Shown piece by piece: positions 9,730 to 12,016 of a DNA stretch of 34,020 nucleotides (the first letter of the stretch is position 1; every line of letters starts with the position of its first letter). Under the pieces are notes generated by a model. The model was not told where the DNA came from. It did not search any database and saw only the letters and a list, made by a program, of their open reading frames with translations. Source of the DNA: Thermodesulfobacteriota bacterium. Its GTDB lineage: Bacteria > Desulfobacterota > DSM-4660 > Desulfatiglandales > Desulfatiglandaceae. The DNA is taken from the NCBI GenBank assembly GCA_030837545.1, contig JAUPKI010000014.1, forward strand, positions 1 to 34,020. The letters are read 5' to 3'. Made by a program: the position numbers and the translations under genes.

Positions 9730-9897
9730 TCAAGATTTTTGGAGATGTAACGGAAAGCTAAGGGGCGCGGCTTTTGTCGCGTCCTCCTTGAGCGACTTGT
9801 TGGCCCTTTCCTTTTCCTTCAATTCGTAAGCTTTGAGCTTTCGATTGAACTCATAAAGATCGCTGATCTTCTTGAGTACCCTATCGATCTTTGTCAT
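9730..9897 (-). CDS. Small basic protein overlapping the nucleotidyltransferase gene
   Basis: MTKIDRVLKKISDLYEFNRKLKAYELKEKERANKSLKEDATKAAPLSFPLHLQKS; ATG at 9897 lies within the 3' end of the upstream gene (stop at 9881). Confidence 0.5.
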   Translation of the reverse strand: MTKIDRVLKKISDLYEFNRKLKAYELKEKERANKSLKEDATKAAPLSFPLHLQKS

Positions 9898-10339
9898 CTT
9901 CGAGCTTCTCAAAATCGGCCTGATCCTGCTTCGAGTCCCTCGACCTCTTAAGCCAGAACAGATCATTTTTATTCGCAAGCATAACCCTTCCTTCTTCCGA
10001 CTCCGCTACCACTGTATCCTGGATTATCCTTCTGACCTCTTCATCTTTGGCAACAAGAATATCGATCATCATTTCATCTTCCGGGGTGACCTTCAAGAAC
10101 CTGTGAAGCTCGATGGCTACGTTCCTGAATGTCCAGGGTGATGTAGATTCGAAATATTCATCGTTCTCGAGAATGCCTTTGGTTTTCTCGAAATCCTCGG
10201 AATCAACAAGAAGGTCGATATCCCGGGTAAAGCGTGGCTCTGTATAGAACGCCATCGCAACTCCACCCACAAGAGCATACCTCACCTTGTGCTTCTCCAA
10301 CTCCATTACCAACCGTTTGAATTCTTCGAACACATTCAT
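9881..10339 (-). CDS. Nucleotidyltransferase-fold protein (AbiEii / DUF6036-like)
   Basis: MNVFEEFKRLVMELEKHKVRYALVGGVAMAFYTEPRFTRDIDLLVDSEDFEKTKGIL...; the GGVA...RxTxDIDLLV motif is the NTase GG/hDh signature. Confidence 0.82.
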   Translation of the reverse strand: MNVFEEFKRLVMELEKHKVRYALVGGVAMAFYTEPRFTRDIDLLVDSEDFEKTKGILENDEYFESTSPWTFRNVAIELHRFLKVTPEDEMMIDILVAKDEEVRRIIQDTVVAESEEGRVMLANKNDLFWLKRSRDSKQDQADFEKLEDDKDR

Positions 10340-10376
10340 TCTGTTTTCCTTAAAGCCAACGGAAAGCTGTGCGCCT

Positions 10377-10703
10377 TTAAAGGCCAAGGCCGAGTTGGGT
10401 GGTGATGGCTTTGCCAATACCATCCATTTCAGCCTTGGAAATGGAGCCCGCTGAATTGATAAGTCGTTTCTTATTTACTGTAGTAATCTGATCGGCCATT
10501 GCCTTAGACTTCTGACCACGAAACGTCACATATGCTTCGCTCGGATAGAGTTTATCAGTATGGCTCGTTATAGGCACGACCTGGACCCGGTTCAGATAAT
10601 GATTTGCAGCGTCATTGCTTACGATGATGGCTGGTCTTTGTTTGCGGATTTCGCCTCCGGTGGAAGCTTCGAAATGAATCCACCACACTTCACCTCTCTT
10701 CAT
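10377..10703 (-). CDS. MazF/PemK-family endoribonuclease toxin
   Basis: MKRGEVWWIHFEASTGGEIRKQRPAIIVSNDAANHYLNRVQVVPITSHTDKLYPSEAYVTFRGQKSKAMADQITTVNKKRLINSAGSISKAEMDGIGKAITTQLGL. Confidence 0.9.
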   Translation of the reverse strand: MKRGEVWWIHFEASTGGEIRKQRPAIIVSNDAANHYLNRVQVVPITSHTDKLYPSEAYVTFRGQKSKAMADQITTVNKKRLINSAGSISKAEMDGIGKAITTQLGLGL

Positions 10704-10923
10704 CGTTGATGTCTCCAATTGTGCCTTCGGCCCATTCAAGGGCTTCAGCTTCCCTGATTTGATCAGATGCCATCTCCTTATATGCAGAATACATGTCGCT
10801 TTTGAGAACATGTGGACGAACTAAGTCTTCAATAAATCTACTGATTCTTCGTGGACCAATGACTGTTCGCAAGCCCTCATAAACCTCTTCGTTTATGGTC
10901 ACTGTGAGTTTCTTTTGCATCAT
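10690..10923 (-). CDS. Antitoxin paired with the MazF-like toxin
   Basis: MMQKKLTVTINEEVYEGLRTVIGPRRISRFIEDLVRPHV...EGTIGDINDEER; RHH-like N-terminus, overlaps toxin start, SD aaggaggtgatt just upstream. Confidence 0.85.
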   Translation of the reverse strand: MMQKKLTVTINEEVYEGLRTVIGPRRISRFIEDLVRPHVLKSDMYSAYKEMASDQIREAEALEWAEGTIGDINDEER

Positions 10924-10940
10924 AATCACCTCCTTAAACA

Positions 10941-10977
10941 TTGCACGTATAGTAACACGTGCAATATTCAGTGTCAA
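10941..10977 (-). promoter_or_regulatory. Sigma70-type promoter with palindromic operator for the TA/nucleotidyltransferase operon
   Basis: Minus strand TTGACA (10977-10972), 17-bp spacer, TACTAT (10954-10949); palindrome TTGCACGT-8nt-ACGTGCAA (10941-10964) covers the -10; SD and ATG follow. Confidence 0.75.
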
Positions 10978-11035
10978 GGCGCCAAAGTAGGTCATGACCA
11001 GGGCACAGGATCAGCTTCGCGGGCGAGAATTCTTT

Positions 11036-11202: not shown

Positions 11203-11883
11203 TTAACAAAATCCAAAAACAGCTACTTCTTCCAGACGTTTTTTTTGTAACACCGGGACTTCGGCGCCGTCGACCGGATAACCGGTCACCAGGATCATAA
11301 AAGGCTTTTCGTTTGAAGGTCGGGACAGCACCCTATTCAAAAAGGCCATGTTGGCGGGGGTATAAGTTAATGAGGCCAGCCCGGCATGGTGGAGGGCGGT
11401 AATCAGCATGCCGGTGGCGATCCCCACCGACTCCTGTACATAGTAGTGTTTCTGCTTTTTGCCGTCCGCATCATAGCCGTGACGTTGAGAGAATATGACA
11501 ATGAGATAGGGCGCTGAGACCAGAAACGGTTTGTGATAGATGGTCCCCAGGGGGGCGAGCGCATCGACCCACTGCCGTGTGGCTTGGGCCGTATAAAATT
11601 CACGCTCCACGGTCTCGGCGGCTTCGCGAATCTCTTTTTTCACTTCGGGGTCCGACACCACCACAAAGGTCCAGGGCTGGATGTTGGCGCCGCTGGGCGA
11701 CGCGGCTGCCGTTCGGATACAGTCTCTGATAATCTCCACGGGGACGGGTCGATCCGAAAAATGGCGCACGCTTCTTCGTCGTTTCATCTCCAGGTAAAAA
11801 TCGGCAGCCCGCTGCTTCATCTCCTCAACTGGATATTCCCTGTACCCGCGATAAGGTTCAAATGCCTTTTCAGTCATGCCCAT
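11203..11883 (-). CDS. Nitroreductase-superfamily flavoprotein closely resembling iodotyrosine deiodinase
   Basis: [99 protein letters not shown]...[32 protein letters not shown]...[16 protein letters not shown]. Confidence 0.9.
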
Positions 11884-12016
11884 GCTCCTGTCTGTCTCGT
11901 GTCCATATTACAACGGCGTCCGCGATAAGATTCTCCCTTTTTGAGCGGATGCCTATCATTATCAACCGGCGGCGATGACAATAAAAGCAAAGGGTCTTCT
12001 TTGAAGAACGTGCCTC

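What the first reader, a model, noticed from the sequence alone, without database searches (positions are those of the whole stretch)
11203..11883. Bacterial iodotyrosine-deiodinase-like flavoprotein hidden under a generic nitroreductase fold
Seen: the protein aligns by eye to mammalian iodotyrosine deiodinase over most of its length (RRSVR, AxSPSGAxxxPWTFVVVxDPxVKxxIR, RxWVxxLxxLxT, HYY, SVxIAxGxLxxALxxAGL, TxTPxN, GYP). The three residues that bind the amino-acid zwitterion in human IYD (E157, Y161, K182) appear at the correct spacing: E-R-E-F-Y, 8 residues to W, then K in HKPFL. Inference: possible reductive dehalogenation of halotyrosines or related phenols, in a lineage where organohalide metabolism is relevant.
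Basis: partly seen in the sequence, partly recalled or inferred. Interest (0 to 1): 0.68.

Follow-up and report, generated by a model that had tools for sequence, protein, structure and literature searches.

The report
Bacterial iodotyrosine deiodinase homologue (ordinary)
This gene encodes a bacterial version of the flavin enzyme that strips iodine from tyrosine in the animal thyroid; the identification is right, but such bacterial enzymes are already known and widespread, and what this one does in its own cell remains unproven.

Summary
Window 11203-11883, minus strand, encodes a 226-aa soluble protein (probably 224 aa from the second ATG at 11877). It is a full-length homologue of iodotyrosine deiodinase (IYD): 1e-71 to Haliscomenobacter hydrossis IYD, 2e-54 to human IYD. 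The zwitterion-binding triad E157/Y161/K182 is present as E93/Y97/K118 without gaps, as are the FMN motif RRSVR, PSGA and the Thr next to flavin N5 (T175). The AlphaFold model superposes best on substrate-bound, lid-closed IYD structures (rmsd 0.9-1.3 A, TM 0.92-0.94). A tree puts it inside a 46-row IYD clade (support 100/99) with human, mouse and Haliscomenobacter IYD. All 90 bacterial relatives examined keep the triad; at least 574 loci in a species-level collection encode relatives. Bacterial IYDs with solved structures already exist, so this is a new member of a known kind. The link to organohalide metabolism is not supported: no reductive dehalogenase or flavin halogenase was found in this genome, and neighbouring genes are unrelated and not conserved. 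Reductive dehalogenation of halotyrosines is the likely capacity; native substrate and electron donor are unknown.

The parts
11203..11883 (-). IYD-family FMN flavoprotein gene, 226 codons plus stop TAA at 11203-11205
   Evidence: translation; phmmer to IYD structures E 1e-71 to 2e-26; Pfam Nitroreductase PF00881 3e-24; purifying selection, dN/dS about 0.24 against the orthologue in the same genus
11885..11890 (-). CAGGAG, Shine-Dalgarno-like; favours the ATG at 11877 as start
   Evidence: sequence; orthologue starts; inference
11764..11778 (-). RRSVR (residues 36-40), FMN phosphate-binding motif, equals human R100-R104
   Evidence: alignment of 92 rows; role from knowledge of IYD structures
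11671..11697 (-). PSGANIQPW (residues 63-71), FMN and substrate phenolate contact loop, human P127-W135 with A130 equal to A66
   Evidence: role from knowledge of IYD structures
11530..11607 (-). active-site lid E93-K118 with the zwitterion triad E93, Y97, K118 and W105, L109, T114
   Evidence: ungapped with human and H. hydrossis IYD, triad in 90 of 90 bacterial rows, absent from nine nitroreductase outgroups; model matches lid-closed IYD structures best
11356..11367 (-). T-Y-T-P (residues 173-176); T175 equals human T239, the Thr beside flavin N5
   Evidence: role from knowledge of IYD structures
11239..11244 (-). K214-K215; K214 replaces human R279, a conservative change shared by 51 of 90 bacterial rows

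Best explanation
A cytosolic, homodimeric FMN protein of the iodotyrosine deiodinase subgroup of the nitroreductase superfamily. Shown here: homology, fold, and all the residues that bind FMN and the amino-acid zwitterion. Inferred from characterised IYDs: a halotyrosine (or similar ortho-substituted tyrosine) stacks on FMN at the dimer interface, E93, Y97 and K118 grip its amino and carboxyl groups and close the lid, T175 next to flavin N5 favours one-electron steps, and reduced FMN expels halide to leave tyrosine. Not shown: activity, preferred halogen, electron donor and role in the cell. The most likely role is salvage or detoxification of stray halogenated (or nitrated) tyrosine taken up from the environment, as a stand-alone gene.
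For: phmmer and profile matches to H. hydrossis, human and mouse IYD over the full length; triad and FMN residues identical and ungapped, invariant in 90 of 90 bacterial rows, absent from nine nitroreductase outgroup proteins; model pLDDT 91.8, best hits are ligand-bound IYD structures at rmsd 0.9-1.3 A, while nitroreductases and BluB-like proteins follow at TM 0.55-0.67; IYD clade 100/99 with human, mouse and H. hydrossis IYD inside; dN/dS about 0.24.
Against: No genomic context points to halotyrosine: no conserved neighbours, no halogenase or RdhA in the genome. The gene is patchy, 9 of 37 genomes of its family and 8 of 395 of its phylum, so it is dispensable. The characterised IYDs in the tree sit in one sub-clade beside, not around, the query, so activity is inferred by homology rather than strictly bracketed (the 6pz0 IYD sequence could not be placed). 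The 90 rows are the closest relatives, so their invariance is not an unbiased sample.
Confidence: 0.8

Rival explanations
1. An IYD-fold protein whose physiological job is not dehalogenation: a reductase of nitro- or other ortho-substituted tyrosines, or a tyrosine-responsive flavin reductase, with dehalogenation as a side reaction.
For: No halogen-related neighbours and no halogen enzymes in the genome; C. elegans SUP-18, an IYD orthologue, acts on a potassium channel and its substrate is unknown (PMC3930498).
Against: The zwitterion-binding triad and lid are strictly kept, and two bacterial IYDs were named and crystallised as deiodinases, one with mono-iodotyrosine. Nothing positive points to another substrate.
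Confidence: 0.35
2. A generic NAD(P)H-dependent nitroreductase or a BluB (dimethylbenzimidazole synthase) rather than an IYD.
For: Pfam gives only PF00881; the best NCBIfam match is BluB at 63.5 bits.
Against: BluB score is far below its 150-bit cut-off; the protein falls outside the nitroreductase and BluB-like rows and inside the IYD clade; it has the IYD lid, which those lack; fold matches to BluB-like and nitroreductase structures are much poorer than to IYD.
Confidence: 0.03
3. Part of an organohalide respiration or halophenol degradation system of the host.
For: Two genomes of the same order have strong RdhA matches (G055, G059).
Against: No RdhA in this genome, its genus, or above cut-off in its family; G055 and G059 have RdhA but no IYD. 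No transport or electron-transfer genes adjoin the gene. H. hydrossis IYD was crystallised with 2-iodophenol (5krd), and from memory of that work the simple phenol is bound but not efficiently turned over.
Confidence: 0.05

Closest known systems
Haliscomenobacter hydrossis IYD (PDB 5ko7, 5ko8, 5krd)
   Same: about 50% identical, full length, soluble, same triad and lid, TM-score 0.93 to the mono-iodotyrosine complex
   Different: K214 instead of Arg at the FMN phosphate position of human R279; Y174 instead of His next to T175
Human and mouse IYD / DEHAL1 (PDB 4ttb, 4ttc, 3gb5, 3gfd)
   Same: 44% identical in the structural alignment, E157/Y161/W169/K182 and RRSVR, PSGA, T239 all kept
   Different: no N-terminal membrane anchor (hydropathy); Q69 for E133
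IYD of PDB 6pz0, 6q1b, 6q1l, 6tyk (192 aa; from memory, Thermotoga neapolitana)
   Same: IYD fold, phmmer E 2e-26
   Different: shorter and more distant, 32% identity, TM 0.74
BluB and BluB-like flavoproteins
   Same: same superfamily, TIGR02476 63.5 bits
   Different: below the family cut-off, no IYD lid

Membership tests
Iodotyrosine deiodinase (IYD) | full-length sequence homology closer to IYDs than to other nitroreductases | tested here: met
   E 1.2e-71 (H. hydrossis), 1.8e-54 (human), then 1.6e-15 for the first non-IYD
Iodotyrosine deiodinase (IYD) | zwitterion triad Glu/Tyr/Lys at human 157/161/182 in the lid | tested here: met
   E93/Y97/K118, ungapped
Iodotyrosine deiodinase (IYD) | FMN-site residues RRSxR, PSGA, Thr239 | tested here: met
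   R36-R40, P63-A66, T175; R279 is Lys
Iodotyrosine deiodinase (IYD) | alpha-beta nitroreductase fold with the IYD lid over FMN | tested here: met
   model best matches lid-closed, ligand-bound IYD structures; FMN, ligand and dimer were not modelled and side-chain contacts were not measured
Iodotyrosine deiodinase (IYD) | falls in the IYD clade | tested here: met
   100/99 support for the 46-row clade, outgroups on long branches
Iodotyrosine deiodinase (IYD) | reductive dehalogenation of halotyrosine | not testable with these tools
   needs an enzyme assay
BluB (TIGR02476) | score above curated cut-off of 150 bits | tested here: not met
   63.5 bits
Reductive dehalogenase RdhA (organohalide respiration) | PF13486 domain protein in the genome | tested here: not met
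   none in own genome although the search finds it in G055 and G059; genome about 97% complete, 456 contigs

The most novel reading that the evidence does not exclude
In a deltaproteobacterium that has no RdhA, the gene is a stand-alone, cobalamin-free route for dehalogenating free halotyrosines (for example bromo- or iodotyrosine from marine or sediment organic matter), with a dedicated but unidentified electron donor.
Probability: 0.25. Interest if true: 0.4.

Novelty: new member of a known kind. Interest (0 to 1): 0.2.

Why it matters
It corrects what automatic annotation would say ('nitroreductase family protein') and adds a well-supported IYD to a lineage where few genomes carry one. The open question, what bacterial IYDs do in nature, is not made more testable by this gene alone, because its neighbourhood gives no clue.

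Tried and rejected
Operon or guilt-by-association: ORFs around the window gene, nine loci from relatives and about 70 named loci were compared; no neighbour is shared beyond close kin. The most frequent neighbour, a 2-hydroxyacid dehydrogenase in 13 loci, occurs mainly in Gammaproteobacteria such as Woeseiaceae and probably reflects shared descent. Promoter and terminator scan: one site of each kind, no more than in shuffled sequence. RdhA and flavin-halogenase search of the genome: none. Second copy of IYD in the genome: only a 27-residue remnant on another contig. Placing the 6pz0 IYD in the tree: its sequence was not printed by the tools, and I did not write it from memory. Primary papers on bacterial IYD and on the superfamily are not held in the library; a 2026 review states that IYD is known from mammals to bacteria, citing Phatarphekar et al. 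2014 (PMC13078365).

Full report
WHAT IS THERE. The reading frame at 11203-11883 is on the minus strand and encodes 226 residues. The plus strand of the same stretch is broken by stops. A Shine-Dalgarno-like CAGGAG at 11890-11885 and the starts of the orthologues favour the second ATG (11877), giving 224 residues (inference). There is no hydrophobic N-terminal segment, so no membrane anchor like that of animal IYDs. The gene is under purifying selection: dN 0.108 and dS 0.459 against the orthologue in the same genus, which is 80% identical.

IS THE OBSERVATION RIGHT. Yes. Against all protein chains in the PDB, the best matches are H. hydrossis IYD (1.2e-71), then mouse and human IYD (about 1e-54), then a shorter IYD (6pz0, 2e-26); the first protein not called an IYD comes at 1.6e-15. 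Pfam sees only the superfamily (PF00881), and NCBIfam has no matching equivalog: BluB scores 63.5 bits against a cut-off of 150. In an alignment of 92 rows, human E157, Y161, W169, L173, T178 and K182 correspond without gaps to E93, Y97, W105, L109, T114 and K118. The triad residues are invariant in all 90 bacterial rows; these are the nearest relatives and so not an unbiased sample. FMN-site residues are also kept (R36, R37, S38, R40, P63, S64, G65, A66, T175); only human R279 is replaced, by lysine, as in 51 of the 90. Nine other nitroreductase-family proteins from this genome and its relatives do not carry the triad.

Fold: an AlphaFold model made with 49 relatives has mean pLDDT 91.8, with the lid stretch (residues 91-120) at block means of 82 to 88. 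Its best PDB matches are the mono-iodotyrosine complex of H. hydrossis IYD (TM 0.93, rmsd 1.2 A) and ligand-bound human IYD (TM 0.94, rmsd 0.9-1.0 A), ahead of the ligand-free forms of the same proteins, in which fewer residues are ordered; BluB-like and nitroreductase structures follow at TM 0.55-0.67. FMN, ligand and dimer were not modelled, so side-chain contacts were not measured. Tree: the query lies within a clade of 46 IYD rows with support 100/99 that also contains human, mouse and H. hydrossis IYD; the outgroups are long-branched, so the internal order is uncertain, but the clade itself is clear.

HOW COMMON. In the named species-level collection at least 574 loci encode relatives, in Gammaproteobacteria, Alphaproteobacteria, Acidobacteriota, Chloroflexota, Planctomycetota, Gemmatimonadota, Bacteroidota and others. 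Near the window it is patchy: 9 of 37 genomes of its family (one of them broken into two pieces), 1 of 24 others of its order, and 8 of 395 drawn from its phylum. The host is probably a deltaproteobacterium: one genome of the same order, G044, has its IYD on a contig of the same number and length as the named record 'Deltaproteobacteria bacterium M55B121', and the nearest named IYDs are deltaproteobacterial (inference).

CONTEXT AND FUNCTION. The neighbours in the window are a BrkB/YihY membrane protein upstream, and downstream a PemK/MazF-like toxin with a small partner gene and a nucleotidyltransferase. The relative in the same genus keeps the YihY neighbour, others do not, and no neighbour is shared across genera. 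The genome has no reductive dehalogenase, although the same search finds strong ones in two genomes of the order, and no flavin-dependent halogenase. So nothing ties the gene to organohalide metabolism. The mechanism I think most likely is that of characterised IYDs: halotyrosine stacked on FMN, zwitterion gripped by E93, Y97 and K118, reductive loss of halide from reduced FMN. This is inferred from homology and conserved residues, not shown. The native substrate and the electron donor are open.

NOVELTY. Bacterial IYDs are known, two have solved structures named as such, and a 2026 review says IYD is known 'from mammals to bacteria' (PMC13078365). C. elegans has an IYD orthologue whose substrate is unknown (PMC3930498). 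This is a new member of a known kind and, apart from better annotation, ordinary. The 0.8 given to the best explanation is for the biochemical capacity (an IYD able to dehalogenate halotyrosine); the rival at 0.35 concerns the physiological role and can be true together with it.

Noticed in passing
G000:C433, locus L007 1501-1581, minus strand: A 27-residue stretch 74% identical to the C-terminus of this IYD, with unrelated sequence before it: remnant of a second, decayed copy, or a contaminant contig.
   Followed up: partly
G033:C166, loci L017, L018, L027: The IYD orthologue in a family relative is split into two pieces with a stop codon: decaying copy or assembly error.
   Followed up: no
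window 10377-10995, minus strand: PemK/MazF-like toxin (PF02452, 4.5e-24) with a small overlapping upstream gene that looks like its antitoxin, though no antitoxin family matched.
   Followed up: partly
window 9881-10423, minus strand: Nucleotidyltransferase (PF14907, and AbiEii just above cut-off), directly downstream of the PemK-like toxin; possibly a second toxin-type gene.
   Followed up: partly
G055:C319 and G059:C272 (loci L125, L126): Strong RdhA reductive dehalogenase matches in two genomes of the same order that lack IYD.
   Followed up: no
loci L039, L041, L051, L060, L064, L068, L069, L071, L074, L079, L082, L094: A 2-hydroxyacid dehydrogenase lies within three genes of IYD in many gammaproteobacterial loci; likely shared descent.
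   Followed up: partly
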